From Tichowtungia aerotolerans (GTDB lineage: Bacteria; Verrucomicrobiota; Kiritimatiellia; Kiritimatiellales; Tichowtungiaceae), in NCBI RefSeq assembly GCF_009905215.1, contig NZ_CP047593.1:2794900-2858899 (forward strand): 64,000 nucleotides of DNA, in the 5' to 3' direction. The notes beneath the pieces are model-generated. The model was not told the origin of the DNA, did no database searches, and was given only the letters and a program-made list of their open reading frames with translations. Every line of letters begins with the position of its first letter. Positions within the stretch are counted from its first letter, which is position 1. The position numbers were made by a program, and so were the translations under genes. Of this stretch, positions 41,099 to 64,000 are shown piece after piece.

Positions 41099-41106
41099 CG
41101 CCGTCT

Positions 41107-42659: not shown

Positions 42660-42805
42660 CCCCCGTTTTTCACGGTGTCATTAATTATGAGTCAACGAAT
42701 CCGTTGAGCCCGCGTCCGGTCGGGCGCTACGGTATCATTTAATTTGAGTCAATTCGCAAATCAAAGTGGTGTGTGTTCTCCTTGTCATGTTAGTTGCGGG
42801 GCGTT

Positions 42806-44479
42806 ATGTTGGTGACCATGATTACAGCACGTCTGAAATGGATTGTTGGCGCCGTTTTATTTGCGATATTTTCGGGGTTTTCCCAGCTGGAAATTGAGCC
42901 GTGGGCGGCGACCGACGGGCTGGGGCGCGAGCTGCCGGGGTACAGGGAGTGCGGCCGACCTCGTGACGATAAGTTTGTCGGCATTTTCTATTTTCTCTGG
43001 CTGGGCGGCCACGAGCAGGCCGGGCCGCATGATATCACAAAAATTTTGCAGCAGCCGGAGGGCGGGCGGCAGTGGGGGAAAAAGAACTTGTTCCACTGGT
43101 GGGGCGAGCCGCGCTTCGGTTACTACCTGATGGATGACGAATGGGTGATTGCCAAGCATGCGCAGATGCTGGCGGACGCCGGGGTCGATGTGGTGATTTT
43201 TGATGTGACCAACGGCTACACCTACAAGGATCATTATCTCAAGCTGTGCGAGGTATATTCCAATATCCGCTCCAAAGGCGGCAAAACGCCGCAGGTTTCT
43301 TTTTTGTTCAATTCCAATCACGTCAAAACCACACGCGAGGTGTATGACGATTTCTACAAGCCGGGCCTGTACCGGGAGCTCTGGTTCGAGTGGAAAGGTA
43401 AGCCGCTCCTGATGACCAACCCGACGGAGCTGCCGGAGGTGATTCTCGACTTTTTTACCATCCGCCGTTCGTGGGCGTGGTGCAAGGGTCCCGGCTCCGA
43501 CTGGTTTGAAGACGGTAAAGACAAATGGGCATGGATCGATCGGTCGCCGCAGACTTACGGTTGGCACGAAGATGATGACGAACCGGAGTATGTTCCGGTG
43601 TCTGCCGCCGCCCACCCGGTCAATCGCACCGGCCGCAGCCACAAAAACGGCAAGCAGCCGTATCCCGAACAGCAGAATTCAATGGTTGGAACCTATTTCC
43701 AGGAGCAGTGGGACCGGGCGCTTGAAATTGATCCTGAGTTTGTTTTTATCACCGGTTGGAACGAATGGGTTGCCCAGCGTTTGGCGTATGGCGGCAAACA
43801 GTCACGCGCCTATGCCAACACAACGGTCGAGCCGGGCGGCTATTGGTTTATCGACCAGTACTCGATCGAATACAGCCGCGACTGCGAACCGATGCGTGGC
43901 GGGTTTGAAGACAATTATTATTATCAGATGGTTTCCAATATTCGGAAATTCAAAGGGGTCGATCGCAAGTGCAATTGGCGCGATGATGCCGGCGACACAC
44001 GCCACCGCAACCATCCCGGCTATGCCTCGGCTGGTCCATACGTCAACGAGTGGGGCCGCAATGATATAGTTTCCTGTGGTGTTTCTCTTGAAGAAACCAA
44101 TTTGATTTTTACCGCTGAAACTGCGGAGGCTCTGCCGCCCCCTCAGGGAACCACATGGATGAACCTGCTTATTCGCAATTCGCGCGAAAGAGATGACGGG
44201 TGGGAAGGATTCCACTTTCGGATTCGTCCAAAGGATCGGGACACTGCAGACTTTCTTGCCTTCGAGGATGGCGAGTGGAAAACTGTTGCGGCGGTTTCGG
44301 CTTCAACAACGGAGAAAACGGTTTCGTTCACTGTGCCGGTTTCAATGATTGGAAAAAGTTTTCGAGCCCTGGAAATCAAATGGTTCGATCATATGCCCGA
44401 GCCGCTCGATATTCTCGATTTTCAGGACCATGGAGATACCGCACCGAACAATCGTTTCCGGTATGTATGGGAGAAGTGA
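42806..44479 (+). CDS. Secreted GH99/WbsX-like glycosidase
   Basis: 557 aa from ATG 42806 (GCGGGG upstream; ATG 42818 possible). Signal peptide (WIVGAVLFAIFSGFSQ). The catalytic-type domain has VGIFYFLWLGGHEQAG near residue 60, DAGVDVVIFDVTNGYTY, and the hallmark ITGWNEW of GH99/WbsX-type alpha-barrels. C-terminal about 110 residues form a beta-sandwich. Paralogue of the protein at 51325. Likely acts outside on a glycan whose identity is unknown; the sulfatase neighbours suggest a sulfated one. Its native promoter may have been displaced by the IS ending 53 bases upstream. Confidence 0.8.
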   Translation: MLVTMITARLKWIVGAVLFAIFSGFSQLEIEPWAATDGLGRELPGYRECGRPRDDKFVGIFYFLWLGGHEQAGPHDITKILQQPEGGRQWGKKNLFHWWGEPRFGYYLMDDEWVIAKHAQMLADAGVDVVIFDVTNGYTYKDHYLKLCEVYSNIRSKGGKTPQVSFLFNSNHVKTTREVYDDFYKPGLYRELWFEWKGKPLLMTNPTELPEVILDFFTIRRSWAWCKGPGSDWFEDGKDKWAWIDRSPQTYGWHEDDDEPEYVPVSAAAHPVNRTGRSHKNGKQPYPEQQNSMVGTYFQEQWDRALEIDPEFVFITGWNEWVAQRLAYGGKQSRAYANTTVEPGGYWFIDQYSIEYSRDCEPMRGGFEDNYYYQMVSNIRKFKGVDRKCNWRDDAGDTRHRNHPGYASAGPYVNEWGRNDIVSCGVSLEETNLIFTAETAEALPPPQGTTWMNLLIRNSRERDDGWEGFHFRIRPKDRDTADFLAFEDGEWKTVAAVSASTTEKTVSFTVPVSMIGKSFRALEIKWFDHMPEPLDILDFQDHGDTAPNNRFRYVWEK

Positions 44480-44770
44480 TGATGACGAAAATAATCGTTA
44501 TTTTTCTGTTTCCGGTTTTTTTGCGGGTGGAGTGTCACACACCCGGAATATTCTATTGATCTATACGGACGATCACAGTTATGCCCCTTTGGGTGCAGGG
44601 CATTTCCAGTGATTCAAAAAGTCTGAACATCGACGCGGTGGGGCGGTGTGCGTATGGCCGACGGCGGCAACACGGCGGCACCGCAGTGCGACGGCTCAAT
44701 AAACGGACAATATCAGAGTAAGCTGGATATTGAGTTCGGCAATTCATTTCTGATGATGACCCAATTCCGT
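44479..44770 (+). pseudogene. Sulfatase pseudogene
   Basis: ATG at 44479 overlaps the GH99-like stop. The pieces are spread over frames: an N-terminal hydrophobic start (IIVIFLFPVFL), then RNILLIYTDDHSYAPLGAG, a stop, then MADGGNTAAPQC and GQYQSKLDIEFGN. These match the start, active-site block and following part of S1 sulfatases such as the one at 62916. The CxPSR active site is lost after the cysteine and most of the gene is deleted. Confidence 0.8.
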
Positions 44771-45903
44771 CAAGGATTGCCTCGCAGAGTATTGGCAAAT
44801 TCCGGGTCGGTCGGCTCCAATTGCCTTGAAAGATACTCGCGGGCATTTTCGCTTAACATTCCCATTTGGTCTATCTCTGTCAGCCATGCTTTAATTGCGG
44901 CAGGATTTTCTGAGTAGAGCTGATGATAAAGGCTGAAGATCAGCGGAGTGAACTCATTCTCGGTAAAAACGAACGATTCGAAATACCCGTATGCGCTTTC
45001 CAGATTTTTTTCTATCAGTTTCTGGAGTCCCGATACCACAAGATCCTGGTAGCGGGGATCTCGGCTGTGGTTCGCCGCCAGTTCGTTCAGTGCTTCTGCA
45101 GGATTTTCATCTGTTTTTCGTGCGAGTATGCTGAAAGTGACTACTTCCCGCAGATCATTCGACGGCAGCGAGTCCCGCCATTCAAGAGCTTCCTCTTCCG
45201 GAAGTTGACCAGCAATCGCGGCTGCCGCTCCGAAACGTGTTTCATGATCGGTGATGCACTCCAGCATTTCGCCGGATAGCTTCAAGTCAGATTCAGCCAT
45301 TCCGGTAATGGCCGCAGCGATAAGTCGGTCATAGGCCTCCAAAACAAATGCTTCCTTGGACTGGGCCAGCCAGTCAATCGTTTGGGAGGGAGCCAGCTCT
45401 GCTGATCTTCTCACCAACACGTCAAACCAATCGTCCCGTAGATTTGTATCCCAGCTGGCCAGTGCATAGTTCATGGATTCATCTGCATCAAAATCGATCC
45501 AGCGATAATGCACGGCAATCAGTCCGCGACGACGATAGCGGAAATCTTCAATCCGGTTGACTGCTTTTAGGTAGATCGGGATATCGTTCGGCGACATTTT
45601 CTGGATCAGCAGGTGAAGCTGGTATTCTGCATTGATGTCGTCGGTATCGATGATGGCCTGCATGGCAGAAAATAATCTGTCTTCTTGGTTTTTCTTTTTA
45701 TCCTCTTCGGCAGTTTCCTGCAGCGGAAGGGGGGTGGAAAATGCCGGGGTGACGCATTCTGTTTCTGATGAAGCCGGAGAATGTTCAGGATCGGAGCTTC
45801 TGTCTGGCAGTAGAAAGAATGCAAGCATTCCTGTCAGAAGAACAAGTGCCATGACAACTGCAATATTTCTGCCTGTTTTCATGGTCGAATTTACAGGCCC
45901 CAT
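44770..45903 (-). CDS. Membrane-anchored helical-repeat protein
   Basis: 377 aa. One N-terminal membrane helix (IAVVMALVLLTGMLAFFLL), acidic/Ser-rich linker, then about 280 residues of alpha-helical repeats (SQTIDWLAQS, AEALNELAANHSRDPRYQD, ESAYGYFESFVF, YHQLYSENPAAIKAWL). Start may be 45903 (ATG overlapping the previous gene's end) or 45882. No family name known to me, but such helical proteins are common in Verrucomicrobia and relatives. Translationally coupled to the upstream secreted protein. Confidence 0.7.
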   Translation of the reverse strand: MGPVNSTMKTGRNIAVVMALVLLTGMLAFFLLPDRSSDPEHSPASSETECVTPAFSTPLPLQETAEEDKKKNQEDRLFSAMQAIIDTDDINAEYQLHLLIQKMSPNDIPIYLKAVNRIEDFRYRRRGLIAVHYRWIDFDADESMNYALASWDTNLRDDWFDVLVRRSAELAPSQTIDWLAQSKEAFVLEAYDRLIAAAITGMAESDLKLSGEMLECITDHETRFGAAAAIAGQLPEEEALEWRDSLPSNDLREVVTFSILARKTDENPAEALNELAANHSRDPRYQDLVVSGLQKLIEKNLESAYGYFESFVFTENEFTPLIFSLYHQLYSENPAAIKAWLTEIDQMGMLSENAREYLSRQLEPTDPEFANTLRGNP

Positions 45904-47192
45904 AGGTCATTTTCACATACTTGGCGTATTTGCGTGGGATTTCCAAACAGGAAGTAAACGTCTCCCCGGAATTCTTCATAGGCATTCAGAGACTCAAGAG
46001 TAACCAAATGAAGCATTCCCGTGGCAACGAATCGTGCTCCAAACCACTCCAAGGTAGATGTGCGCAGAGAGTCTCGCAGTTCGGCACCGTATACACGGTC
46101 ATCGGTGTAAAGTACAGCTCCTGTGGACCGGTTTCGACCTACGATGCATGTGTTGTTGAAGCCGCTTGCGGGATAATAGCATCCTATAGCCATCTTGTTG
46201 CCGCCGATATCTTGATTTTGTGCCAGAATCAAAAGCCGCTTGCCTGGAGTTCCGTAGCTTTCCAGTCCGGTTCCATAGTCATCAGCAGTCCGATTGCGCA
46301 ACGTCTGGTTGTTGTAGACATTGACAACATTCAACCAGTTGCCGGAGCGATCTGCCATCTGCCAGTTTCCGTTGTTATCAATCCATCGTGTGACTGTGAA
46401 AGGAGATCGATCTGTGTCAAATCGCACTGCCATCGAACAGCTGATGTTCGACAGGTAGTAAGTCAAGTCTGGATGACTGCCTGAGGGGTTTGTATTGGAA
46501 ATGTCGGTTACAGATCCATTGACTGGGTCCAGCACTGTCGCTCCTGGCCCAAATTGACGGAAGCATTCCCCTGACGGTCCGCGTACCAGCGAATAGGTGA
46601 ACATGTGTCGGAAAATCGGTATATCATATGTTATTCCCTGGACCCGTTCGTATCTACCCCAATAGTCAAATTCACTTTTAACTTCCGCATCTTGTTTTCC
46701 AGGCAGGTTTTCTTCGTCTATTGGATCGGTATCGCTGTTGCCGTTGTCGTTTGTGTACGGGTCGGCCCCGATGTTTTCCCAGCGGGTGAAGTCGTACAAC
46801 CCGTCTCCATGCCAGAGGGCGCACGGACGAGACTGAATAGCCATTACAGAACTGTTGGCTATAATTGTCGAAGGTGTGCCTAGAGTTTCATTGAAGCCTG
46901 CCTGTGTGGGATTATACCTGTCGGAGTGTAGGCGATCACGAATGGAGCTCTGGCCCATACGACCATACATATCCGCATTCGGTCCCATAAGATCGGTGCC
47001 GCCAACAATAATTTGGTTAATGGCCCCTCCACCATAGGAGGTGATGCCAAGTGTAATGTTATTATAGGTTATGCTATGCGTTGTAACGGTTGGGTTGCTC
47101 GGAGCTATCACGGCTCCTCTGCCGATTTGACCGAGCAGGCAGGCCATTGTAAGGGCCGTGATGAGATAATCTTTTATGTCTTTTTGTATCAT
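45891..47192 (-). CDS. Secreted protein of an unrecognised family
   Basis: 433 aa with signal peptide (ITALTMACLLGQIGRGAV). It aligns along its whole mature length with the C-terminal half of the protein at 60489: GGGAINQI / GGGYINRL, RYNPTQAGF in both, RPCALWHGDG / RPCVLFRGDG, DEENLPGKQ / DESLLPGKQ, SEFDY, FRHMFTYSLVR / FRHYYEYRYVR, and YTDDRVYGAELRDS / YRDDRRLHVELRDS. Beta-rich; could be a glycan-active enzyme or binding protein. Expression is probably under the GTTTACAG box at 47266. Confidence 0.75.
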   Translation of the reverse strand: MIQKDIKDYLITALTMACLLGQIGRGAVIAPSNPTVTTHSITYNNITLGITSYGGGAINQIIVGGTDLMGPNADMYGRMGQSSIRDRLHSDRYNPTQAGFNETLGTPSTIIANSSVMAIQSRPCALWHGDGLYDFTRWENIGADPYTNDNGNSDTDPIDEENLPGKQDAEVKSEFDYWGRYERVQGITYDIPIFRHMFTYSLVRGPSGECFRQFGPGATVLDPVNGSVTDISNTNPSGSHPDLTYYLSNISCSMAVRFDTDRSPFTVTRWIDNNGNWQMADRSGNWLNVVNVYNNQTLRNRTADDYGTGLESYGTPGKRLLILAQNQDIGGNKMAIGCYYPASGFNNTCIVGRNRSTGAVLYTDDRVYGAELRDSLRTSTLEWFGARFVATGMLHLVTLESLNAYEEFRGDVYFLFGNPTQIRQVCENDLWGL

Positions 47193-47591: not shown

Positions 47592-49460
47592 ATGGTTAAG
47601 AAGTGCTTTTTCGGAATTTCAGCGATGGCAGCTTGCGCGTTGGCGGACAAGCCGATGAACGTGGTGTTTATTCTGGCGGATGATCTGGGATGGTCGGATA
47701 CCACGCTGTATGGGCATACGAGCCTTTACAAAACACCGAATATTGAGCGGCTGGCGAAGCGCGGTATGACGTTTACGCGGGCGCATTCCAACAGCCCGCT
47801 CTGTTCGCCGACACGCGCGAGTATTCTGACCGGGCAGACACCCGCACGTCACGGGTCGACTGCGCCGCAGCACCATCTTGGGACCATGCGGATGGAGCCC
47901 TCGGTTAAGCCGTCGGCTCCGCCCGGCAGCAAGGCGCTTGAGACCGAGTCGGTGACGCGCCTCGACACGGCTTTTCCAACCCTTGGAAAAATGGTTCAGG
48001 ATGCCGGGTACAAAACCGCGCATTTTGGAAAATGGCACCTTGGTCCGGAGCCGTACAGCCCGCTGGAGCACGGTTTTGATGTCGACATCCCGCACTGGCA
48101 CGGTCCGGGACCGAAGGGCAGTTTTGTTGCGCCGTGGAGCTACCCGCGGCTGCAGCCCAAATCGCCGAAAGAGCACATTGAAGACCGCATGGCCGAAGAG
48201 GCCGTAAAATGGCTGGGTTCGGTAGGCAAAAAGCCGTTTTTTATGAACTACTGGCAATTCTCGGTTCATGCGCCGTTTGATGCCAAGGAAGAGCTGATTG
48301 AGAAATACCGCAAGGAAATAAACCCCAACGATCCGCAACGCTGCCCGGTTTATGCGGCAATGGTGCATTCGCTCGACGATGCGGTCGGCACGTTGCTCGA
48401 TGCCATTGACGCAAACGGACTGAGCGATGAAACAATTATCGTTTTTACATCGGATAACGGGGGCAATATGTACAACGAGGTCGAAGGTGAAACCCCGACC
48501 AGCAATGCGCCGTTGCGCGGCGGAAAAGCGACGATGTTTGAGGGCGGAATTCGTGTGCCGTGTGTAGTCGTCTGGCCGGGCGTCACGACGCCGGAAAGCC
48601 GCTGCGATGAAATCATTCAACTGTCCGATTTTTATCCCACACTGCTGAACGGTCTCGATATTGATCTCCCTGCAGACTGGCCGATTGACGGTGTCGATCT
48701 GATGCCGGCACTGAAAGGCGGCACGCTGGGGCGCGATGCCATCTTTACCTATTTTCCGCATTCACCTCCGATTCCGGACTGGCTGCCGCCGGCGATGTCG
48801 GTCCATTCCGGAGACTGGAAGCTGATCCGGCTGTTCTGTCAGGGAGAAAACGGCGCGCATGATTATCGGTTGTATAATCTGAAGGAAGACATCGGGGAGA
48901 AAAATAATCTGGCGGCGTCCTATCCGGAAAAAGTCAGAACGCTCGATCGGATGATCGAAAACTATATTGAAGAATCCGGCGCGGTGGTTCCGCAGCCCAA
49001 TCCGAAGTTTAATCCGAAAATGTACGCACCGGAAAATATCGGGGTGCCGAAAGACAAGCAGAAACTGAAAGGGGAGGTGGCCGGATGGATCGGGGCCGGA
49101 ACCTGCTCTCTGGAGCAGGGAGAAGGAACTCTGGTTGTCAACAGTCGCGGTGAAGACCCGTTTTTGAGTGCGCAGAGGTTTGATGCGGTTAAAGGCGGGC
49201 CGTTTAGAATTTGTTTCAGCATGAAGTCCGATTCCAAAGGGACCGGAACAGTGTATTATAACAAACCGGCAGCCGCCGGACGCACGGTGTCATTTCCGGT
49301 CCATCACGACGGTGCATATCATGAATATGAGGTAAGCATTCCGGTGGATATGCTGAATGCCGTACGCCTCGATCCATCACGCGGTCCGGGTCGTATGGAA
49401 ATTGATTGGATTAGAGTTTTTAACAGCTCAGGTGAAGCCGTTTGTGAGTGGGCTTTTTAA
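47592..49460 (+). CDS. Secreted S1 family sulfatase with C-terminal beta domain
   Basis: 622 aa. Signal peptide to about residue 18. Alkaline-phosphatase-like sulfatase core: [13 protein letters not shown] (metal Asp pair D30-D31), active-site [12 protein letters not shown] with Cys 71 to be turned into formylglycine, HFGKWHLG, and FTSDNGGN. After about residue 490 comes an extra about 110-residue beta domain ([38 protein letters not shown]), like a carbohydrate-binding module. It removes sulfate esters from a glycan. Contains the perfect palindrome at 47974-47988 (AFPTLGKM). An anaerobic sulfatase-maturing enzyme or FGE must be elsewhere. Confidence 0.92.
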
Positions 49461-49818: not shown

Positions 49819-51324
49819 ATGAAAAAGAGTGGGAAAATAAGGTATAAAACAGTGGCTGCCATGATCGGTTTGGTTGTCGGGTTGGGCCAGGCAGCTGCAG
49901 AAAAAAAACCTAATATATTATATATTATGGCGGACGACCAGCGTTATGACACGCTGGGCTGCACTGGCAATCCGGTGCTGAAGACACCGAACATCGACAG
50001 GCTGGCCGAGCAGGGGGTGAGTTTCAGCAAGGCGTTTGCCACCACACCGATCTGCTGTGTCAGTCGCGTCTCTGTTCTGACCGGTCAGTATGCCCGCCGT
50101 CACGGTGTGCATGACTTTTTCACCCAGGTTCCAGACCTTGGAAAAACCTATCCGGGCATCCTGCAGCAGAACGGATACTACACCGGTTTTATCGGCAAGT
50201 GGGGCACCGATGAGCAGAATCAGGAATACTTTCAGCGCGTTTCCTCCTTTTTCGATTTCTGGGGCGGTTCAATGCATCAGTCCAACTACTGGCATGAGCG
50301 TGACTGCCGGTTTGTGAAAAACAACGGTACGACCGATCGCACGGAATTCCAATGCGACTGTCCGCCCGATGCGCGCGGCGCCAAAGGAGAGCAGACTCGG
50401 GTCGGTCGCAAAAACATCCAAGACCCGATCCATCAGGAAATCCACGTGATTCCGCAAAAGGTGGAGCAGTTCCTATCGCAGCGCGATGCGGACAAGCCGT
50501 TCTGCCTTTCGATCAGCCTGAAGGCGCCGCATGGCCCGTGGGGCGATTATGCGGATGAGGTAAAGCATTTGTTCGAGGGAGTTGCGCTGCCGGTCAAGGC
50601 ATCGGTTGATGTCACCGATGCGGAGAACCGCCCGGACTTTCTCAAAAACTCGCTGATGAATCCGCAGCGCGGATCAAAGCTGGTGCGCGATCCAAAAATG
50701 CTGCAGGAGGAGATGCGTCACTATTACCGCCTGATCGCCGGGATCGATATCTGCATGGGCAAAATTCTGGCATCCTTAAAGGAGCATGATGTGGATGACA
50801 ACACCGTCATCATCTACACCTCCGACCACGGACACTTTCTCGGCGAACACGGCTTTGACGGGAAATGGCTGCTCTACGAAGAGTCGGCGCATATTCCGAT
50901 GATTCTCTACGATCCGCGAAACCCGGTGCAGGCACAGACGAGCGACGAGCTGGCGCTGCTGATTGATATGGCTCCAACCATGCTTGATTTGGCGGAGATC
51001 AAAGTGCCGAAGGACATGCAGGGTAAGAGTCTTTTGTTGCAGCTGACCGATCCAGCGCAGCCTCTGCGCGACTCCTTTTTCATGGAGCACCTGTACGGTC
51101 ATGGGCCGAAGCCGCCGAATCACATTGAACGCTCGGAAGGTGTGCGCACCCGCCGTTGGAAATACATCAACTATATCGATCAGTCCGGCCCGCAGTCGGA
51201 AGAACTCTATGACTTAGAAAATGATCCGATGGAAATGCATAATCTTGCAGGGAACCCTGAATTTACTGTGCAGTTCAAAAAAATAAGCAGTCAATGGCGT
51301 CGTTATCGCGAGGAGCTGAAGTAA
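49819..51324 (+). CDS. Secreted S1 family sulfatase
   Basis: 501 aa. GGGGAG precedes the ATG. Signal peptide (MIGLVVGLGQAAA). Sulfatase core: ILYIMADDQRYDTLG (D39-D40), active site CCVSRVSVLTGQ with Cys 79 (Val in the place of the usual Pro, a known variant), GFIGKWGTD, SLKAPHGPW and YTSDHGHFLGEHG. It differs clearly from the sulfatase upstream, so it should act on another position or sugar. The palindrome copy at 50129-50143 has one mismatch. The next gene starts right after its stop. Confidence 0.92.
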   Translation: MKKSGKIRYKTVAAMIGLVVGLGQAAAEKKPNILYIMADDQRYDTLGCTGNPVLKTPNIDRLAEQGVSFSKAFATTPICCVSRVSVLTGQYARRHGVHDFFTQVPDLGKTYPGILQQNGYYTGFIGKWGTDEQNQEYFQRVSSFFDFWGGSMHQSNYWHERDCRFVKNNGTTDRTEFQCDCPPDARGAKGEQTRVGRKNIQDPIHQEIHVIPQKVEQFLSQRDADKPFCLSISLKAPHGPWGDYADEVKHLFEGVALPVKASVDVTDAENRPDFLKNSLMNPQRGSKLVRDPKMLQEEMRHYYRLIAGIDICMGKILASLKEHDVDDNTVIIYTSDHGHFLGEHGFDGKWLLYEESAHIPMILYDPRNPVQAQTSDELALLIDMAPTMLDLAEIKVPKDMQGKSLLLQLTDPAQPLRDSFFMEHLYGHGPKPPNHIERSEGVRTRRWKYINYIDQSGPQSEELYDLENDPMEMHNLAGNPEFTVQFKKISSQWRRYREELK

Positions 51325-52920
51325 ATGAAGATAAAAGTTTTACTCGGTTGCGGGGTTGTTTTTGCGGGCATGGTTTTTGCAAACCCATGGCCGGCGACGG
51401 ATTCGCTGGGGCGCAAGCTGCCGACGCATGAAGAAGTCGGCGCTCCGCGAAAAGATCGCTATGTGGCGATGTTTTATTTTCTTTGGCAATACCAGCATTC
51501 GAAAACCGGCCCGCACGATATCACAAAGATTCTGGCTGAGCACCCGGAGGCGCGTCAGGATGCCGATCATCCGGCATGGGGCCCGCCTGGTCATTATCAT
51601 CATTTTTCCGAACCGCTGTTCGGCTATTATCGGTCAACCGATGAGTGGGTCTATCGAAAACATGCCGAAATGCTGGCTGATGCGGATATTGATGTGATCG
51701 TTTTCGATTGCAGCAACAACTTTACTTACAAGGAAAGCTACATGGCGCTGTGCCGGGCCTTTGATCAGGCACAGCGGGATGGAGTGGATGTCCCGAAGAT
51801 TGCTTTCCTCTGCCGCTTCGGCCCAAATTGGCCGGGAGAGGTGGTTGAAATTTATAACGACCTCTATGGGCCGGGGCTGTATGAAAACCTCTGGTTTCAC
51901 TGGAAAGGTAAGCCGCTGATTATGGCGTATCCCGAGAATGTACCGGATGAGATTCAGGACTTTTTCACTTTTCGCGCGCCCATGCCGACTTACTTCGACG
52001 GGCCGTCGCGCCCCGACCACTGGAGCTGGGCGCAGGTTTGTCCGCAGCATTCATTTGGCGGCACCAAAAGGCATCCCGAACAGATGGCGGTTGCTGTTGC
52101 GCAGAATGCCGTAGCAGGGAAACTGTCGGCGCTCAGCCATCCCGACGCGCAGGGACGCAGTTTTCATAAAGGGAAAGACGATACGCGCCCGGATGCTTAC
52201 CAGTATGGGTTTAACTTTGAGGAGCAGTGGGATTACGCGTTGGAGAAAGACCCGGAACTGATCTTTGTGACCGGCTGGAACGAATGGGTCGCCATGCGCC
52301 TGAACGCATTCAACGGTTATGAAGCCCCGGTCGTATTTGTCGATTTGTTCGATGTTGAGCACAGCCGCGACATTGAACCGATGAAGGGAGGCTACGGCGA
52401 TCTCTATTATTACCAGCTGGTTTCCAATGTTCGGAAATTCAAGGGAATGGAGGCTCCGGACACATCGGGAACCTACTCCGACTATCGCGGCGATACCATG
52501 CACCGCGACCATCCGGGGTGGGGCGACAAGCTGCACTACATCGACCAACAGGGTCGCAACGATATCATCAAGACAGCTGTCATGCACGATTCCGAATTTG
52601 TGCGTTTTCGCGTTGAAACCGCCGCGCCATTGACGCCGCCGGAAGGTGACTCGTGGATGCTGCTTCTGATCGACACCGACCGTTCCAGAAAAACGGGCTG
52701 GGAAGGCTACGACCTGACGGTTGATTTCCGCAGTTCCAACTATTGGAAACTCGAGGACAACACGCTCGAGCTCGCCATTGAGCGGGAGAAATTCGGCGAC
52801 ACCCTCGATTTTGAATTCAAGTGGGTGGACAACCTGAACCGCCTCGGCGATATCATGGATTTTTATACCTGCGGCGACACCGCGCCCGGCGGACGGTTTA
52901 ACTACCGCTTTTGCGAATAG
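51325..52920 (+). CDS. Secreted GH99/WbsX-like glycosidase, paralogue 2
   Basis: 531 aa, starts one base after the sulfatase stop, so translated with it. Signal peptide (VLLGCGVVFAGMVFANP). Same build as the protein at 42806: PWPATDSLGRKLP, YVAMFYFLWQYQH, GPHDITKIL, DVIVFDCSNNFTYKE, FVTGWNEWVA and a C-terminal beta-sandwich ending FYTCGDTAPGGRFNYRF. Perfect palindrome at 52734-52748 coding SSNYWK; one-mismatch copy at 52422-52436 (VSNVRKF), matched by VSNIRKF in the paralogue. Confidence 0.82.
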   Translation: MKIKVLLGCGVVFAGMVFANPWPATDSLGRKLPTHEEVGAPRKDRYVAMFYFLWQYQHSKTGPHDITKILAEHPEARQDADHPAWGPPGHYHHFSEPLFGYYRSTDEWVYRKHAEMLADADIDVIVFDCSNNFTYKESYMALCRAFDQAQRDGVDVPKIAFLCRFGPNWPGEVVEIYNDLYGPGLYENLWFHWKGKPLIMAYPENVPDEIQDFFTFRAPMPTYFDGPSRPDHWSWAQVCPQHSFGGTKRHPEQMAVAVAQNAVAGKLSALSHPDAQGRSFHKGKDDTRPDAYQYGFNFEEQWDYALEKDPELIFVTGWNEWVAMRLNAFNGYEAPVVFVDLFDVEHSRDIEPMKGGYGDLYYYQLVSNVRKFKGMEAPDTSGTYSDYRGDTMHRDHPGWGDKLHYIDQQGRNDIIKTAVMHDSEFVRFRVETAAPLTPPEGDSWMLLLIDTDRSRKTGWEGYDLTVDFRSSNYWKLEDNTLELAIEREKFGDTLDFEFKWVDNLNRLGDIMDFYTCGDTAPGGRFNYRFCE

Positions 52921-52958
52921 AGGTGCGCGCCAGGTCGGGTGGTTATTTCATTTTGATC

Positions 52959-52987
52959 TTGAATGACACTGTTTACAGCGCTATAAA
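52959..52987 (+). promoter_or_regulatory. Promoter with operator-like box upstream of DUF5722 gene 1
   Basis: TTGAAT (-35, 52959-52964), 17-base spacer holding TGACACTGTTTACAGC (52964-52979), TATAAA (-10, 52982-52987). Aligns base for base with the promoter at 56886. A box between -35 and -10 is typical of repression. Confidence 0.65.
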
Positions 52988-53012
52988 TTTGGTTCAAAAG
53001 AAAGGTGGGGGC

Positions 53013-56000
53013 ATGAGGCTTTGTTCGTTTCATTTTGTGTTGCTGTTTGGGAGCCTTTTCTTCGGAAATCCTCAGGTTTTTGGCGCCGGAATGACACTGA
53101 TTAAGGCTTCTGATTCTGACATTACGGTTCAGCTTAACGAAGCGGTTTCAGGCACGGTGAATCTTTTGGAGATTGAGCCCTACGATACGCTCAACCCGCT
53201 GCGGGGATTGACGAGCAACCGGCCGGACTGTCAGGCGCTGGATTTGTCGAACGACGGATTTCTCCGGGTGACCTTTATCGACCCCGCACCGGCCGGATTT
53301 GATCCGCAAATTGAGTTTAAAGATTATCCGGTAAATGCAGATTATGTCGGACAGTTTTCGATGCGTGTCCGGGTCTCGAGGACGCAGAGTGGGGCGGATA
53401 TGCCGTTTCGAATTTTCGGGCTTCCGGCTTATCAGGACATTTTGGTTCCGGCGGACGGGGCCTGGCATATTGTCCGCGTCGACATGACGACGACGAATTG
53501 GAGTGGAACGTCCCGTATATTGCGGATCGATCCGGCTAATGCGCAGAGCTTTGCTGTCAATTCGAATACCGTAGTAGATATCGACTGGGCGGCGGTGACC
53601 TATCGCGACGATTTTGACGGCAGTCGCAACCACACCGGCTTTGATGTATTTATCGACCTGGGAATGCCGGAGCCGTCTTGGTCCGGAACGGCTCAACGCG
53701 AAATCGTGCTTTCACGATACAACGGGGTGCGCGACCGGCTTTACTCCAAATACATTTTAACAGATGCCGGAACCAATCAGATCGGTCATGCGCGGTTTGT
53801 AACCGATCTGTCCGAGCTTTTATACAGCGAAGACTCGCTGCAGGGATGGACTGCGCTGAATGTCAATAACGGTATCATGGAGCCGGTGGTTTCCGGTGGC
53901 ATTTTAGCCGCGCAATACCAGGCCCCGACTTCGGGCTCGCCATGGGATCCCGGAGTTCAGGACGGTGCGCCGTTGCGGGTGGATATGGATGTCGCCAAAG
54001 AATTTGCGATGAAGTATCGCATTGCCGGTTACAGCGGCAGTTTTTCGACCGTGCCGATGGCGCTCTACGGATTTGTGCTGGGTGAGCTCGGCACGGCGCG
54101 TCAAGAAGATGTGCTGATTCCGGACGGCGAGTGGCATGTGTACCGCACGCGGCTGGATCAGTCTGTCGGAGCACTGAGCTGGCACGGCGATGTAAAAATC
54201 CGCCTGGATGTGCCCAACAGTGATCCGGGCAACTATCCGTCGAGCCATTTCATTGGCGGCAGCATTGAACTCGACTGGGTATCGGTTTCCGATGACGCAC
54301 GGTTTACACCGTCGCAACCGCTGTGCGATGGCGGGCAGGTTTGGACCTTTGAGGATGATCGTACCTTTGCGCTTTCCGACGGCGGTGGGTTTAAGGGAAC
54401 GGACGGGACGGTTCTGACTGATAAAGCTGATCTGGGCATTCAGAAAAACAAAATGAATTTTCTGCAGAAAAATGCGCTTAATCTGTCTCTTTCTCCGGGG
54501 ACAACCTGGGCGGTGGACGAGTTCGATATCGGTATCAATGCCAGTTATGTTCACAACAATATGGGAGATGACATTCGTTATGCCTCTGCCAACGGCATGG
54601 CAACGATTATTACCTCATTGAATTCGCTGGGGGATTATTGGCTCGATGAAGGCACTGCCGATCAGCGTTTCAATCCACTGCGTAATCCACTTTCTTCCAC
54701 GAACGCACCCAACACATTTTCGGTGGCGCATAATGTGATGGACCCGGTCGGGCTGGCACATTATCGCGGCACGATGGAATACCTCGGCAGATATTTTTCG
54801 GATCCGTCCGGCAAGAACGGCGAGCTGTATCGTTTTACGATCGGTAACGAGCTCGATCAGCACTGGGCTTGGTATAACCTCGGTGAAATCACAATGGAAG
54901 AGGTTGTGGAAATCTATCTCACCTCCTGCCGCATTGCCGACCTGGCGCTGCGTTCGCAGCATCCCGATTACCGCATTTATCTTTCGTTCACTCATTACTG
55001 GGACAAACTCGGCGGCATCGCGGATCCGTTGAAGTGCGCAAATATGCGCGATTTCCTCGATCTGTTCGCCGCACGCGCCAAAGAAGAGGGCGATTTCCCG
55101 TGGGCGCTGTGCATTCATCCGTATCCGCAAAGCCTGTTTGATCCCACCTTCTGGGATGACACCGGGCCGACGGATTCGTTTGATACAGAATATATGACCT
55201 TCAAAAATCTGCAGGTGGCGCGGCGCTATCTGCAGCAGGAGTCCATGCTCTATAATGGACAGGTACGTGGCATCAACCTCGGCGAACAAGGGTTCCATGT
55301 GGCCGTCGACGGCGACGCCGAAGATGAAGCCATCCAGGCGGCGGCAATGGCTTATTCCCATAAAATTGTTGAGCAGGTGCCGGATATCGAGGCCTACCTC
55401 TACCATCGTCAGGTCGACCATTCGCTGGAGGGAACCCTGCGCTTTGGTATCTGGGCGGACAATCCGGATGTCGACGGCCAACAGCTGTTCCGCCGGCGTC
55501 CGTCGTGGTATGTGCTGCGCGATTACGGCACTGATAATGAGTCAGCAACTCTGGATCCGTATCTGGCATATCTGCCGATCAGCAGCTGGGACGACATCAA
55601 TCTGGCCGATATCAAACTCGATTATGACTTCGATGAACCGGATCCGAACATTACCACGATCCAACTTCCAATGTTTGGAACTGCCAACGGTGTCTTCTAT
55701 GGAACAGTCGCCACCAACGACCCGCAGATGATCAACGCCAATATCAACACCTATGGTGACGGACAGGAAACCTTGCTGCTGCGTCTGAAAGCCGAGCGCA
55801 GCGGCAACTGGCAGCTGTTCTGGAAAAACGCCGGCGATGTCGCGTTTGCTCAGGCCCGATCAGCTCTGATCCCGGTTTCCGCATCCACTGTTTTTCAGAT
55901 TGTCTCCGCTGATTTGTCGACCAACGCTCTTTGGGTCGGTCAGAATCTTAAAGCGTGGCGACTGGATCCCGTCGGTTCGACCACTGCTTATGACTTTGAA

Positions 56001-56540
56001 CTCGATTACATCAAGTTCGGCCCCGCCGGAGATTTTGATGGTGACGGCATTACAGATGCTCTGGAATCTTCCGCCGACTCGGATGGCGACGGCCTGCCGG
56101 ACTTTGCCGACACCGACTCCAACAACAACGGCTGGAGCGACACCCGTGAAGCTTCCAGAGGATGGAATGCTGCGTCTGATGATACGGATGGCGACGGCAT
56201 GTCCAATGAGTGGGAAATTCAATACGGCTTTGATCCGCATGACGCACTGGAAGCGCAGTGGGATTTCGATGGCGACGGTTACGACTCGCTCGCTGAACAC
56301 ATTGCCCTGACCGATCCGGAAAACGGACTCGACTATTTCGTAATCGATGGTGTTGGCGAAGCCGTTGTTACGGTCGATGCCAAGGCCGGGCGCACCTACA
56401 CGCTGCTTGCGGCAGCCAATCTGGTTTCCAATGTCTGGAATCCGGTGGATGTGCAGACGGTCGCCGTTGATGGTCCGCTGGTTCTGGTGGATACGAACGA
56501 CACGGAAACAGCCGTGTACAGGGTGCGGGTGAGTAAATAG
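53013..56540 (+). CDS. Secreted DUF5722-like putative glycoside hydrolase 1
   Basis: 1175 aa; AAGGTGG precedes ATG 53013. Signal peptide (to FGAG). Two N-terminal beta-sandwich regions (about 25-480; each ends in a pattern like RLDPANAQ/ELDWVSVSDD). The DUF5722-like barrel spans about 490-900: FTIGNELDQHWAWYN with E613, HPDYRIYLSFTHYWD, HPYPQSLFDPTFWDD and INLGEQGFHVAVDG with E758. An Asn-Glu and a later Glu fit clan GH-A acid/base and nucleophile. Then thrombospondin type 3 calcium repeats (DFDGDGITDALESSADSDGD in parts, about 1005-1100) and a small terminal beta domain ending VYRVRVSK. Substrate unknown. Confidence 0.75.
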   Translation: MRLCSFHFVLLFGSLFFGNPQVFGAGMTLIKASDSDITVQLNEAVSGTVNLLEIEPYDTLNPLRGLTSNRPDCQALDLSNDGFLRVTFIDPAPAGFDPQIEFKDYPVNADYVGQFSMRVRVSRTQSGADMPFRIFGLPAYQDILVPADGAWHIVRVDMTTTNWSGTSRILRIDPANAQSFAVNSNTVVDIDWAAVTYRDDFDGSRNHTGFDVFIDLGMPEPSWSGTAQREIVLSRYNGVRDRLYSKYILTDAGTNQIGHARFVTDLSELLYSEDSLQGWTALNVNNGIMEPVVSGGILAAQYQAPTSGSPWDPGVQDGAPLRVDMDVAKEFAMKYRIAGYSGSFSTVPMALYGFVLGELGTARQEDVLIPDGEWHVYRTRLDQSVGALSWHGDVKIRLDVPNSDPGNYPSSHFIGGSIELDWVSVSDDARFTPSQPLCDGGQVWTFEDDRTFALSDGGGFKGTDGTVLTDKADLGIQKNKMNFLQKNALNLSLSPGTTWAVDEFDIGINASYVHNNMGDDIRYASANGMATIITSLNSLGDYWLDEGTADQRFNPLRNPLSSTNAPNTFSVAHNVMDPVGLAHYRGTMEYLGRYFSDPSGKNGELYRFTIGNELDQHWAWYNLGEITMEEVVEIYLTSCRIADLALRSQHPDYRIYLSFTHYWDKLGGIADPLKCANMRDFLDLFAARAKEEGDFPWALCIHPYPQSLFDPTFWDDTGPTDSFDTEYMTFKNLQVARRYLQQESMLYNGQVRGINLGEQGFHVAVDGDAEDEAIQAAAMAYSHKIVEQVPDIEAYLYHRQVDHSLEGTLRFGIWADNPDVDGQQLFRRRPSWYVLRDYGTDNESATLDPYLAYLPISSWDDINLADIKLDYDFDEPDPNITTIQLPMFGTANGVFYGTVATNDPQMINANINTYGDGQETLLLRLKAERSGNWQLFWKNAGDVAFAQARSALIPVSASTVFQIVSADLSTNALWVGQNLKAWRLDPVGSTTAYDFELDYIKFGPAGDFDGDGITDALESSADSDGDGLPDFADTDSNNNGWSDTREASRGWNAASDDTDGDGMSNEWEIQYGFDPHDALEAQWDFDGDGYDSLAEHIALTDPENGLDYFVIDGVGEAVVTVDAKAGRTYTLLAAANLVSNVWNPVDVQTVAVDGPLVLVDTNDTETAVYRVRVSK

Positions 56541-56914: not shown

Positions 56915-56937
56915 TATGTGTTGAATGAGAGGTGGTA

Positions 56938-59900
56938 ATGCGTATTTTTTCTGTAAATGTTTTTGTGTTTCTTATATTGGTTTTTTCCGGAATCCTGCCG
57001 GTTTTCGGGGCCGGAATGACGCTGATTAAAACTTCTGATTCTGACATTACAATTCAGCTTGATGAGTCGGTTTCCGGCAGTATCAAACTTCTGGAAATTG
57101 AGCCCTATGATACATTGAATCCTTTGCGCGGACTGGTTCAGAATCGGGCGGATTGTCAGCAGCTGGATTTGTCCAATGACGGGTTTCTGCGGATGACGTT
57201 TCTGAACGGAAGTCCGTTCGATCCCCAGATTTATTTTCCGGATTATCCAATCAATGCCGATTATGTGGGCCAGTTCAGCATGCGTGTGCGAGTGAGCGGC
57301 ACACAGGGCGGGGCGGATATGCCGTTCCGGATTTTCGGTCTGCCTCTTACTGCGGATTATCAGGATTTTAATGTGCCGGCAGACGGCGAGTGGCACATTG
57401 TGCGCGCAGATGTCATGAACTGGAGCGGAACGCGCTCGTTGCGGATTGATCCGGCAAATGCTCAGGACTATGCCATCAATTCGAATGCCGTGGTTGATAT
57501 CGATTGGGTGGCGGTGACATATCGAAATGATTTTTCCGGCGACCGCCATCATACGGGTTTGGATGTGTTTATCGATCTGGGAATGCCGGAACCGTCCTGG
57601 TCGGGAAGCGCGCAGCCGGAAATTGTTTTGCCGCGCTATAACGGGGTGCGCGACCGACTTTACTCCAAGTATATTCTGACTGATGGGGCGACCAATCAGG
57701 TTGGGAGTGCCCGTTATGTGACGGACCTGTCCGGGCTGTCTTATCGTCAGGATTCACTGCAGAACTGGTCTTCACTGAATACGGCCAACGGTGTGACTGC
57801 CGCAGCGGTTTCCAACGGGATTCTGTCGGTACACTATCAGCTGCCTGCAGGAACCTGGGATCCGGGGGTTCAGGAGAGCGGAGCGCGTCGCATCGATATG
57901 GATGTTGCACAGGAATTTGCGATGAAATACCGGATCAGCGGCTATACTGGCGGGTTGTCAACGGTATCGCTTGGTGTGTTTGGTTTTGTGTTGGGAGAGG
58001 ACGGCCCTGCCCGGCAGGGCGATGTACTGATTCCGGACGGGGAGTGGCATGTGTTTCGGACGACACTGGACAGTTCAATCGGTACGTTGACATGGCACGG
58101 GGATGTTCGAATTCGCGTCGATGTTCCCAACGCAGGCACTGCGGGTTCTCAGGCTTCGGATTTTGCCGGCGGAACTTTTGAGCTGGACTGGCTTGCTGTT
58201 TCTGATGATGCGCTGTTTACACCGTCGCGGCCGCTGTGTGAGGGCGGGCAGGTTTGGACGTTTGAGGATGACCGGACTTATTCTCTTTCCGACGGCGGCG
58301 GATTCAAGGGAACGGACGGATCGGTTCTGACCGACAAAACCGATCTGGGCATCCAGAAAAACAAGATGAATTTTCTGCAGAAAAACGCGCTGAATCTGTC
58401 TCTGTCTCCCAGTACGACTTGGGCGGTGGATGAGTTTGATGTCGGTATTAACGCAAACTATGTTCACAATAACCTGGGAGAGGATATTCGGTATGTCACA
58501 GCCAACGGTATGGCCACGATCATTACCTCGCTGAATTCTTTAGGGGATTATTGGCTTGATGAAGGGACGGCCGATCAACGTTTCAACCCGTTGCGCAACC
58601 CGCTGTCTTCCCCTAGTTCTCCAAACTCGTTTTCTGTTGCTCATAACGTGATGGACCCGGTTGGACTGGCGTATTATCGAGGTACGATGGAATACCTGGG
58701 CCGTTACTTTTCCGATCCATCCGGCGTAAACGGGGAACTGTATCGGTTTACCGTTGGAAACGAACTGGACCAGCATTGGAGCTGGTACAACGTCGGCGAA
58801 ATGGAAATGGAAGAGGTGGTGGAAATCTACCTCGTTTCCTGTCGCATCGCCGACCTCGCGCTGCGCTCGCAGCATCCCGATTACCGAATCTATCTATCGT
58901 TTACTCATTACTGGGACATGCTGGGCGGAAATGTCGGAGCATTGAAGGCCTGTAATATGCGCGACTTCCTTGATCTGTTTGCAGCGCGCGCCAAAGAGGA
59001 GGGCGACTTCCCATGGGCACTCTGTCTTCACCCGTATCCGCAAAGCCTGCTTGATCCCACGTTCTGGGATGATCCCGGTCCGGTTGATTCGTTCGATACG
59101 GAATATGTCACCTTCAAAAACCTGCAGGTGGCCCGCCGTTATCTGCAGCAGGAATCCATGCTCTATAACGGGCAGGTGCGCGGCATCAACCTCGGCGAAC
59201 AGGGGTTCCATGTGGCCGTCGATGGCGACGCCGAAGATGAAGCCATTCAGGCTGCTGCAATGGCCTATTCGCACAAAATCGTTGAGCAGATCCCAAACAT
59301 GGAGGCTTATCTGTATCACCGACAGGTCGACCTCTCACTCGAGGGCAATTTGCGTTTCGGCCTGTGGGCCGATAATCCGGACATTGACGGGGCACAGCTG
59401 TTCCGCCGCCGCCCATCCTGGTATGTTCTGCGCGATTATGGAACCACCAACGAGGCCGTGCAGTTTGATCCGTACCTGTCGTACCTGCCGCTCAGCAGTT
59501 GGGATGAAATCAATTTGGCCGATATTGCACTCCGTTATGAGTTCAATGCTCCGGATCCTGATTTCACATCGGAGCAAATTGATGCATTTCAGATTACCGA
59601 TGGAGTCTGCCGCGGAACGGTGAGCGGTTTGGATCCAAAAATTCAGAACCTGAACGTCAACACCTACGGGGACGGGCAGGAAACCTGTATTCTCCGAATC
59701 AAGACGGCGAAGTCCGGCAGCTGGCAGTTGTTCTGGCGCAAGGCAGGAGGTACGTTCAATCAGACTCAACCTATCTCGTTTTCGGTGACGGCTTCCGGTG
59801 AGTTTTCCGTTTATCAGTTTGACCTTTCTGCGGATACGAACTGGTGCGGAGCCAACATTACCGGCTGGCGACTGGATCCCGTCGGCTCGTCAACCGCTTA

Positions 59901-60450
59901 CGACTTTGAAATCGATTATATGTATTTTGGCCCTGCCGGCGATTTCGACGGAGACGGCATCGCTGACGCTCTGGAATCTACCGCCGATTCCGATGGTGAC
60001 GGCCTGCCGGACTTTGCTGATACCGATTCCAACAACAACGGCTGGAGCGATGCGCGGGAAGTTTCCAACGGTTGGAATCCTGTTTCGTCCGATACGGATG
60101 GCGACGGCCTTTCCAATGAGTGGGAAATTCAGTACGGCTTCGACCCACACGATGCACTTGAATCGGCATGGGATCTCGATGCCGACGGCTATGACACACT
60201 CGCCGAGCATATCGCGCTGACTGATCCGGTCGACGGACAGGACTATTTTGTGATTGATGGAGCGGCCGGTCCGGCGGTTTCAGTCGTTGCCAAAGCCGGG
60301 CGCACATACACGCTGCTGGCCTGCACCAACCTGTCTTCCAATGTTTGGAAGGCAGTGGATGTGCAGGCAGTCGCCATCGATGGGCTGCTGGTTCTGGTGG
60401 ATACGAACGACACGGAAACAGCCATGTACAGGGTGCGGGTGAGTAAATAG
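56938..60450 (+). CDS. Secreted DUF5722-like putative glycoside hydrolase 2
   Basis: 1170 aa; AGAGGTGG precedes ATG 56938. Same order as its neighbour: signal peptide (to FGAG), two beta-sandwich regions, barrel with FTVGNELDQHWSWYN (E609) and INLGEQGFHVAVDG (E754), calcium repeats and terminal beta domain (MYRVRVSK). The two Glu are 145 residues apart in both copies. Clearly a tandem duplicate; the barrel is the best conserved part. Perfect palindromes at 60063-60077 and 60336-60350, the latter in the terminal domain as SSNVWK. Confidence 0.75.
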   Translation: MRIFSVNVFVFLILVFSGILPVFGAGMTLIKTSDSDITIQLDESVSGSIKLLEIEPYDTLNPLRGLVQNRADCQQLDLSNDGFLRMTFLNGSPFDPQIYFPDYPINADYVGQFSMRVRVSGTQGGADMPFRIFGLPLTADYQDFNVPADGEWHIVRADVMNWSGTRSLRIDPANAQDYAINSNAVVDIDWVAVTYRNDFSGDRHHTGLDVFIDLGMPEPSWSGSAQPEIVLPRYNGVRDRLYSKYILTDGATNQVGSARYVTDLSGLSYRQDSLQNWSSLNTANGVTAAAVSNGILSVHYQLPAGTWDPGVQESGARRIDMDVAQEFAMKYRISGYTGGLSTVSLGVFGFVLGEDGPARQGDVLIPDGEWHVFRTTLDSSIGTLTWHGDVRIRVDVPNAGTAGSQASDFAGGTFELDWLAVSDDALFTPSRPLCEGGQVWTFEDDRTYSLSDGGGFKGTDGSVLTDKTDLGIQKNKMNFLQKNALNLSLSPSTTWAVDEFDVGINANYVHNNLGEDIRYVTANGMATIITSLNSLGDYWLDEGTADQRFNPLRNPLSSPSSPNSFSVAHNVMDPVGLAYYRGTMEYLGRYFSDPSGVNGELYRFTVGNELDQHWSWYNVGEMEMEEVVEIYLVSCRIADLALRSQHPDYRIYLSFTHYWDMLGGNVGALKACNMRDFLDLFAARAKEEGDFPWALCLHPYPQSLLDPTFWDDPGPVDSFDTEYVTFKNLQVARRYLQQESMLYNGQVRGINLGEQGFHVAVDGDAEDEAIQAAAMAYSHKIVEQIPNMEAYLYHRQVDLSLEGNLRFGLWADNPDIDGAQLFRRRPSWYVLRDYGTTNEAVQFDPYLSYLPLSSWDEINLADIALRYEFNAPDPDFTSEQIDAFQITDGVCRGTVSGLDPKIQNLNVNTYGDGQETCILRIKTAKSGSWQLFWRKAGGTFNQTQPISFSVTASGEFSVYQFDLSADTNWCGANITGWRLDPVGSSTAYDFEIDYMYFGPAGDFDGDGIADALESTADSDGDGLPDFADTDSNNNGWSDAREVSNGWNPVSSDTDGDGLSNEWEIQYGFDPHDALESAWDLDADGYDTLAEHIALTDPVDGQDYFVIDGAAGPAVSVVAKAGRTYTLLACTNLSSNVWKAVDVQAVAIDGLLVLVDTNDTETAMYRVRVSK

Positions 60451-62915: not shown

Positions 62916-64000
62916 ATGAAGTTGATTGTCGAGATTCTGGTGTTGCTGCTGTGTATGAGCGCTTTGGGCGCAAACTATGTGTATCAGGGAAACGGCAGCG
63001 ACCCGGACAACTGGTTTGATGATGCCAACTGGAGTGAAGCCGGAGGAGTAACCAACTGGCCTGCGGCGGGTGACAATGCTTTGTTTACATCTGAACTCGG
63101 GATGACTGTTTCGCAGGCAGTACCTTCGTTCAATCAACTACAGCCCGGACGCGGCGCAACCAATACAGTGACGGTTGCGGCAGGCGGCGTGATGACGAAT
63201 CTTAACCAGACGGTGGTTGGTATTCTTGATAACGGCGAAGGTCATCTGATTGTTGACGGCGGGACGCTGGTGACAAAGGCGCTGCGGTTGAATGTGTTTG
63301 ACGCTAATACCAGCGTTTTGAGCCCGGAAACTTCTTTTGAGCTCAAAGCCGGAGCGGTTCATGTCAATGCTTCATTTGGTGGAGTGAATGCAGGAGATGT
63401 CGATTTTGGATTGAATGAGTCCGCCACGATGAAAATTTCCGGCGGGGCTCTGACTGTCGATAATAATCTGGATTTTACAGCAGGGCTGCTGGAGATCACC
63501 GGAACAGCGGGGTCCGTGAATATCGGAAACAGCCTGAACCTTGGAACCGGAGCGGGCAGTAAAACAGAACTTGCGTTTGTGTTGGGCGTTACGGGTGGTG
63601 TCACAACAGTTTTCGCCGGCAGTTTTGCTTTGCAGGGAGTGTCCACGATTAAGGTGGATGGGCGTTTTGCGGTTGGGCAGGGAGCTCAGAACCTCATTTT
63701 GATCGATCTGCAGAGCGACACGTTTGAGGCCGCAGAGTTTGCGGTGCTGTCAAATAACTTTTCGATGGCCGGGATGACGGGCGGAGAGCTGTCTCTGAGC
63801 GCCGATGGCTCACAGCTGCTGTTCAGCGGTGCACCGTCGGAGCAGCGTCCGAATATCATTATTATCTACACGGATGATCACGGTTTCACGGATCTGGGTG
63901 CTCATGGTATTGATGATAATGTGCAGACGCCGGTGCTTGATTCGCTGGTGACCGGTGGAGCACTGATGGCGAACGGATATTCCACGGCTCCTCAGTGTGT
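62916..64000 (+). CDS. Secreted sulfatase with N-terminal beta-repeat domain, 3' partial
   Basis: 361 codons seen before the window ends. Signal peptide (EILVLLLCMSALGAN). Residues about 20-305 repeat the N-terminal domain of the gene before (YVYQGNGSDPDNWFDDANWS, GGTLVTKALRLNVF, NESATMKISGGALTVDNNL). At about 310 an S1 sulfatase begins: RPNIIIIYTDDHGFTDLGAH, TPVLDSLVTGGALMANGYS, TAPQC; Cys 361, probably the future formylglycine, is the last complete codon. AGTGAGG precedes the ATG. Not listed anywhere with a stop because the end is outside. Confidence 0.85.
   Translation, partial: MKLIVEILVLLLCMSALGANYVYQGNGSDPDNWFDDANWSEAGGVTNWPAAGDNALFTSELGMTVSQAVPSFNQLQPGRGATNTVTVAAGGVMTNLNQTVVGILDNGEGHLIVDGGTLVTKALRLNVFDANTSVLSPETSFELKAGAVHVNASFGGVNAGDVDFGLNESATMKISGGALTVDNNLDFTAGLLEITGTAGSVNIGNSLNLGTGAGSKTELAFVLGVTGGVTTVFAGSFALQGVSTIKVDGRFAVGQGAQNLILIDLQSDTFEAAEFAVLSNNFSMAGMTGGELSLSADGSQLLFSGAPSEQRPNIIIIYTDDHGFTDLGAHGIDDNVQTPVLDSLVTGGALMANGYSTAPQC

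What the first reader, a model, noticed from the sequence alone, without database searches (positions are those of the whole stretch)
45891..47192. Unrecognised secreted protein family, two members in this island
The 433-aa protein and the C-terminal half (about 400 residues) of the 803-aa protein at 60489 share many ungapped blocks, including RYNPTQAGF, an R-P-C-x-L-x-x-G-D-G block, L-P-G-K-Q, SEFDY, F-R-H-x-x-x-Y and E-L-R-D-S, yet I recognise no known family. Both are exported and sit among sulfatases and putative glycosidases. Conserved Arg, His, Asp, Glu and Tyr residues would suit a lyase or hydrolase.
Basis: partly seen in the sequence, partly recalled or inferred. Interest (0 to 1): 0.65.

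Follow-up and report, generated by a model that had tools for sequence, protein, structure and literature searches.

The report
Unnamed secreted fucanase-fold enzyme family
Two genes in this stretch belong to a real but unnamed family of secreted bacterial proteins whose predicted shape is closest to enzymes that cut sulfated seaweed fucans, and whose genes often sit beside genes for removing sulfate and rhamnose, so it is probably an uncatalogued enzyme for digesting sulfated, rhamnose-rich algal polysaccharides.

Summary
No Pfam, NCBIfam, PHROG or PDB sequence matches. Relatives (31 copies aligned) come from Kiritimatiellota, Verrucomicrobiota, Bacteroidota, Planctomycetota, Sumerlaeota and Bdellovibrionota. 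The family is rare and patchy (2 of 387 genomes sampled in the home phylum); several members carry type IX secretion tails. A 25-sequence AlphaFold2 model (pLDDT 88.7, pTM 0.90) is an all-beta supersandwich. Its best solved matches are the two GH174 endo-1,3-fucanases (Z 20.8 and 19.7; other rows 16.6 or less), yet sequence profiles do not recognise GH174. Neighbouring genes encode sulfatases and, in Flavobacteriaceae, Pelagicoccus, one Pontiellaceae locus and a Sumerlaeota genome, GH78/GH106 alpha-L-rhamnosidases. Best reading: a secreted endo-acting glycanase of sulfated rhamnose-containing algal glycans, a candidate new CAZy family related to GH174 at fold level. Fold and context are shown; catalysis, bond and substrate are inferred.

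The parts
45891..47192 (-). 433-aa secreted protein P0001, single-domain member of the unnamed family (domain = residues 28-433)
   Evidence: signal-peptide-like N-terminus MIQKDIKDYLITALTMACLLG read directly
46893..46919 (-). signature RYNPTQAGF (residues 92-100): N94 and G99 in 31/31 members, Q97 and P95 in 30/31
46713..46748 (-). acidic loop DNGNSDTDPIDE (residues 149-160) with D154, D156, E160 in 31/31; resembles a calcium-binding loop (inference)
60489..61685 (+). N-terminal module (residues 1-399) of the 803-aa protein; no Pfam match; 63% identical to the N-terminus of the neighbouring sulfatase
61686..62900 (+). C-terminal family domain (residues 400-803) of the 803-aa protein P0002
44770..45903 (-). 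377-aa partner, overlaps the 3' end of P0001 by 13 bases (likely same operon); a 34%-identical homologue lies next to the family member in Pelagicoccus (L014 8613-9860)
62916..64000 (+). start of a protein of about 1060 aa: same N-terminal module as P0002 followed by a sulfatase domain (continues past the window)
47592..49460 (+). sulfatase (PF00884, E 1.9e-56)
49819..51324 (+). sulfatase (PF00884, E 4.4e-55)
42794..44479 (+). GH99-like protein, below the Pfam cut-off (E 0.0015); homologue beside the family copy in Pontiellaceae L025
51325..52920 (+). GH99-like protein, below the Pfam cut-off (E 0.0021)
52911..56540 (+). DUF5722 protein (E 1.3e-77), homologue in the Pontiellaceae locus
56932..60450 (+). 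second DUF5722 protein (E 7.2e-74)

Best explanation
The family is an uncatalogued secreted carbohydrate-active enzyme domain of about 390-410 residues with a beta-supersandwich fold closest to GH174 endo-1,3-L-fucanases. It most likely acts outside the cell as an endo-acting glycoside hydrolase that opens sulfated, L-rhamnose-containing algal polysaccharide (ulvan or rhamnan-sulfate type) so that neighbouring sulfatases and GH78/GH106 rhamnosidases can finish the job. Shown: family, export signals, fold, neighbourhood. Inferred: that it is catalytic, that it hydrolyses rather than eliminates, that the invariant acidic and basic residues form the active site and sulfate-binding cleft, and that rhamnose is in the substrate.
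For: Model pLDDT 88.7, pTM 0.90; the top two VIA-align rows are the two GH174 structures, Z 20.8 (rmsd 3.1, 257 aligned) and 19.7 (rmsd 3.5, 268 aligned), next 16.6 and then about 15 and lower; Foldseek rank 1 is also GH174, E 5e-8. 14 polar or charged residues are invariant in 31 members that are 22-49% identical to P0001. Bacteroidota members carry type IX secretion tails. GH78/GH106 lie within 10-15 kb of the family in three Algibacter genomes, Flavicella, Pelagicoccus and Pontiellaceae contig C111, where only about 3-8% of each genome is that near one; L-rhamnose mutarotase RhaM is in the same Algibacter locus; a GH78 homologue lies beside the second Sumerlaeota copy. Domain swap: the same N-terminal module is on P0002 and on a sulfatase. 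No GH88/GH105 or polysaccharide lyase was identified among the genes scanned in the Algibacter (about 40 kb) and Pontiellaceae (about 60 kb) loci, which argues for hydrolysis (the tally shows only 25 of 44 families).
Against: A shared supersandwich does not prove activity. Identity to GH174 is 9-14% and profiles miss it. Whether GH174 residues D119, E120, E218 have counterparts could not be tested. Rubritalea and the Bdellovibrionaceae genome have a family copy but no GH78/GH106 at all, and the Seonamhaeicola and Planctomycetota copies are not near one, so the substrate may differ by clade. In the window's own island the only rhamnosidase-like gene is a distant GH106 relative about 7 kb on. 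A sparse alignment (25 rows) supports the model, and the model is of the Planctomycetota homologue, 38% identical to P0001.
Confidence: 0.5

Rival explanations
1. It is a polysaccharide lyase: the invariant Arg, Asn and Tyr with a nearly invariant His act as neutraliser and base on a uronic acid next to sulfated rhamnose, as in ulvan.
For: Invariant R85, N94, R257, Y362, R366 and near-invariant H89, Y93 resemble lyase residue types; PL26 and PL4 rhamnogalacturonan lyases are among the fold matches (Z 14.9 and 12.5); in Pelagicoccus a BNR_4 plus GH88 gene lies about 8 kb away.
Against: GH174 beats the lyases by about 5-6 Z units; no GH88/GH105 gene was identified in the Algibacter and Pontiellaceae loci, where a lyase's unsaturated products would need one.
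Confidence: 0.2
2. It is a non-catalytic secreted glycan-binding or sugar-processing module of the galactose-mutarotase-like superfamily.
For: The fold is shared with many non-catalytic supersandwich domains of GH36, GH38, GH94 and with aldose epimerases.
Against: Most members are stand-alone proteins of about 430 aa with no other domain to assist, the invariant set is rich in acidic and basic residues, and one genome may hold three to five copies, mostly in one locus.
Confidence: 0.2
3. It is a fucan-cleaving enzyme like GH174 itself, the rhamnosidases nearby being bystanders.
For: The closest fold match is an endo-1,3-fucanase; related Pontiella strains degrade fucoidan (PMC10880615).
Against: Rhamnosidases and RhaM are the glycan-specific neighbours in several independent lineages; no fucosidase family was seen in the Pfam scans of neighbours.
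Confidence: 0.1

Closest known systems
GH174 endo-1,3-L-fucanases (Fun174A, Fun174Sb; PDB 8jd7, 9k1g)
   Same: Best fold match over nearly the whole domain (Z 20.8 and 19.7); GH174 enzymes cut sulfated 6-deoxyhexose polysaccharides, the kind of substrate inferred here (PMC11943901)
   Different: 9-14% identity, no profile match at E up to 10; different predicted sugar; GH174 catalytic residues not located here
Galactose mutarotase-like superfamily (GalM, aldose 1-epimerases; supersandwich domains of GH36, GH38, GH94, GH97)
   Same: Beta-supersandwich topology, Z about 12-15
   Different: No Pfam match to any such family in 25 members
PL26 and PL4 rhamnogalacturonan lyases
   Same: Contain a similar supersandwich domain, Z 14.9 and 12.5
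   Different: Multidomain enzymes; no sequence match; lower Z than GH174
GH39 endo-rhamnosidase of ulvan degradation
   Same: Functional parallel: an endo-cleaving enzyme for rhamnose-containing ulvan fragments (PMC8360166)
   Different: Classed in GH39; the present proteins match no Pfam family at all

Membership tests
GH174 | Sequence similarity to GH174 (CAZy families are sequence-based) | tested here: not met
   Profiles of 4, 25 and 31 members against PDB sequences: no GH174 match at E up to 10
GH174 | Beta-supersandwich fold over the whole catalytic domain | tested here: met
   Z 20.8 and 19.7, model 9-383 against chain 70-375 and 5-384 against 71-374
GH174 | Catalytic residues D119, E120, E218 of Fun174A | not testable with these tools
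   No residue-level structural alignment or GH174 sequence could be obtained; residue numbers from PMC11943901
GH174 | Cleaves alpha-1,3-L-fucan | not testable with these tools
   Needs an assay
Any Pfam-A, NCBIfam or PHROG family | Profile match above cut-off | tested here: not met
   all 25 members against Pfam: nothing significant
Polysaccharide lyase | Partner unsaturated-uronyl hydrolase (GH88/GH105) in the locus | tested here: inconclusive
   None identified in Algibacter and Pontiellaceae loci, one GH88 domain near the Pelagicoccus copy
Galactose mutarotase / aldose 1-epimerase | Pfam aldose epimerase match | tested here: not met
S1 sulfatase | PF00884 in the family domain itself | tested here: not met
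   P0001 and P0002 have no Pfam match; their neighbours do

The most novel reading that the evidence does not exclude
A new CAZy-level glycoside hydrolase family, structurally a sister of GH174, that supplies an endo-acting cleavage of sulfated rhamnan or ulvan backbones in Kiritimatiellota, Verrucomicrobiota and marine Flavobacteriia.
Probability: 0.35. Interest if true: 0.7.

Novelty: new variant of a known kind. Interest (0 to 1): 0.52.

Why it matters
Enzymes that open sulfated rhamnose-rich algal polysaccharides from the inside are few; exo-acting rhamnosidases and sulfatases need one to make chain ends. A family defined here by sequence, with a confident fold, invariant candidate residues, cultured hosts (Algibacter, Flavicella, Seonamhaeicola, Pelagicoccus) and small single-domain members is directly testable, and would let hypothetical genes in marine glycan loci be named.

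Tried and rejected
AlphaFold2 with only 4 sequences failed (pLDDT 32). The first genome-contig scan with 2 sequences found nothing; the second with 4 sequences found 20 loci. Viral contigs and plasmids: no relatives. A chlorovirus capsid protein and chlorovirus models appear in the fold lists but without sequence support; treated as a common supersandwich. Copper amine oxidases rank in Foldseek with rmsd near 20 and are absent from the 50 rows; rejected. Sulfatase neighbourhood as evidence of substrate: weakened by base rate, dozens of sulfatases in most of these genomes. Weak hits in G213 and G1415 are fragments and were not used. Literature: searches for rhamnanase, rhamnan hydrolase or rhamnan lyase gave no enzyme of this kind in the held library.

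Full report
Observation. The finding is a 433-aa ORF at 45891-47192, which is on the minus strand, and an 803-aa ORF at 60489-62900 on the plus strand. BLASTP aligns 414 columns at 42% identity, 263 bits, E 3e-84. No Pfam, NCBIfam or PHROG family matches either, and no PDB sequence matches the 433-aa protein. The genome has only these two copies.

Family. Searching with the two proteins plus two copies from a genome of the same order brought 20 loci from genome contigs: Pelagicoccus, Flavicella, Algibacter, Seonamhaeicola, a Flavobacterium MAG, Pontiellaceae bacterium B12227, Planctomycetota, Puniceicoccales, Rubritalea, Bdellovibrionaceae, Sumerlaeota and others. With further copies from whole genomes the alignment has 31 members. 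None of 25 members matches Pfam. The family is rare and patchy: 2 of 387 genomes sampled in the home phylum (one being the window's own), only the seed genome among 343 Planctomycetota, 2 of 299 in the family of Algibacter. A maximum-likelihood tree puts the 433-aa protein with Pelagicoccus (100/100) and the 803-aa one with Pontiellaceae and a Puniceicoccales MAG (100/99), so the two window copies are old, separate lineages. Patchiness across phyla suggests horizontal transfer; this is an inference.

Conservation. Fourteen polar or charged residues are identical in all 31: R85, N94, D130, D134, D154, D156, E160, E170, Q213, R257, N346, Y362, R366, E406 in the numbering of the 433-aa protein. 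The signature RYNPTQAGF and the acidic loop DNGNSDTDPIDE are the strongest blocks. That the acidic loop binds calcium is only suggested by its pattern.

Export and modularity. Several Bacteroidota members end in a type IX sorting domain; others have lipoprotein-like N-termini by eye. In the window the C-terminal module of the 803-aa protein is the family domain, while its N-terminal module is 63% identical to the N-terminus of the next gene (62916 onward), which continues into a sulfatase domain. The same accessory module thus carries two different working domains.

Fold. With four sequences the prediction failed. With 25 sequences and the Planctomycetota homologue (38% identical to the 433-aa protein) as query, mean pLDDT is 88.7 and pTM 0.90. 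The best solved structures are the two GH174 endo-1,3-fucanases, Z 20.8 (rmsd 3.1, 257 aligned) and 19.7 (rmsd 3.5, 268 aligned), against 16.6 for a chlorovirus capsid protein and about 15 for the first other glycosidases and PL26 lyases; Foldseek also ranks GH174 first, E 5e-8. Sequence profiles nevertheless do not find GH174 in the PDB sequence set, so membership in GH174 is not met although the fold is alike. The reported key residues of Fun174A are D119, E120 and E218 (PMC11943901); I could not map them because no residue-level alignment was available.

Neighbourhood. In Algibacter and Flavicella the family sits beside GH106 and GH78 alpha-L-rhamnosidases and sulfatases, with L-rhamnose mutarotase and GH43 in some. 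In Pontiellaceae contig C111 two copies lie in a locus with two GH78, many sulfatases, GH99-like proteins, DUF5722 and a distant GH106 relative. In Pelagicoccus GH78 genes are about 8-13 kb away. In a Sumerlaeota genome a GH78 homologue is next door. Only 3-7% of these genomes lies within 10 kb of a rhamnosidase, yet the family loci in seven of them hold one to four (the three Algibacter genomes and Flavicella are related and count as about one lineage, and the window's own hit is the distant GH106 relative). Exceptions: Seonamhaeicola, the Planctomycetota MAG, the Verrucomicrobiaceae MAG and Pontiellaceae contig C11; Rubritalea and the Bdellovibrionaceae MAG lack GH78/GH106 altogether. Sulfatases are so abundant in most of these genomes that their presence alone says little. 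In the window's own island the rhamnosidase evidence is one distant GH106 relative about 7 kb beyond the second copy.

Mechanism. The best reading is a secreted, endo-acting hydrolase of sulfated rhamnose-containing glycans. Steps shown: family, export signals, fold, context. Steps inferred: catalysis, hydrolysis rather than elimination, rhamnose in the substrate. A lyase remains possible because of invariant Arg, Asn and Tyr; against it is the lack of an identified GH88/GH105 gene in the Algibacter and Pontiellaceae loci. A non-catalytic role is possible because the supersandwich is common.

Known state. Verrucomicrobiota are reported as specialists on sulfated methyl pentoses with GH78 and GH106 surrounded by sulfatases (PMC8857213). 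An endo-rhamnosidase acting on ulvan fragments is described only as an unusual GH39 enzyme in the review read here (PMC8360166). No paper found in the held library describes a rhamnanase of this kind; subscription papers and CAZy itself were not searchable, so a recently named CAZy family cannot be excluded.

Noticed in passing
window 60489-61685 and 62916-63848: An unnamed N-terminal module of about 300-400 residues is fused to the new family domain in one gene and to a sulfatase in the next (63% identical); it recurs in Pontiellaceae B12227 loci (L027, L019).
   Followed up: partly
window 52911-56540 and 56932-60450: Two tandem DUF5722 proteins with C-terminal TSP3 repeats; a homologue lies in the Pontiellaceae locus next to the family copy.
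   Followed up: partly
window 42794-44479 and 51325-52920: Two GH99-like proteins below the Pfam cut-off, homologous to two in the Pontiellaceae locus; possibly a second uncatalogued glycosidase family.
   Followed up: partly
window 44770-45903; L014 8613-9860: A 377-aa protein without Pfam match overlapping the 433-aa gene by 13 bases has a homologue beside the family copy in Pelagicoccus: a conserved partner of that clade.
   Followed up: partly
L017 5337-6296, 4225-5304; L051 13440-14291; L052 10856-11920; L024 2307-3269; L056 11029-12006: Three more families without a naming Pfam match (about 320 aa, about 355 aa with a PKD domain, and about 320 aa) recur in these loci; the first two across phyla.
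   Followed up: no
window 39842-42659: Two genes that look like transposases at the edge of the island; 41430-42659 matches IS481 weakly (E 4e-7), the other was judged by eye.
   Followed up: no
L027 8810-11202: A third Pontiellaceae copy is split between two frames (frameshift in the gene or in the assembly).
   Followed up: no
L049 6441-9374: 977-aa distant GH106 relative just beyond the window, with homologues of 1008 and 1034 aa in both Pontiellaceae loci.
   Followed up: partly
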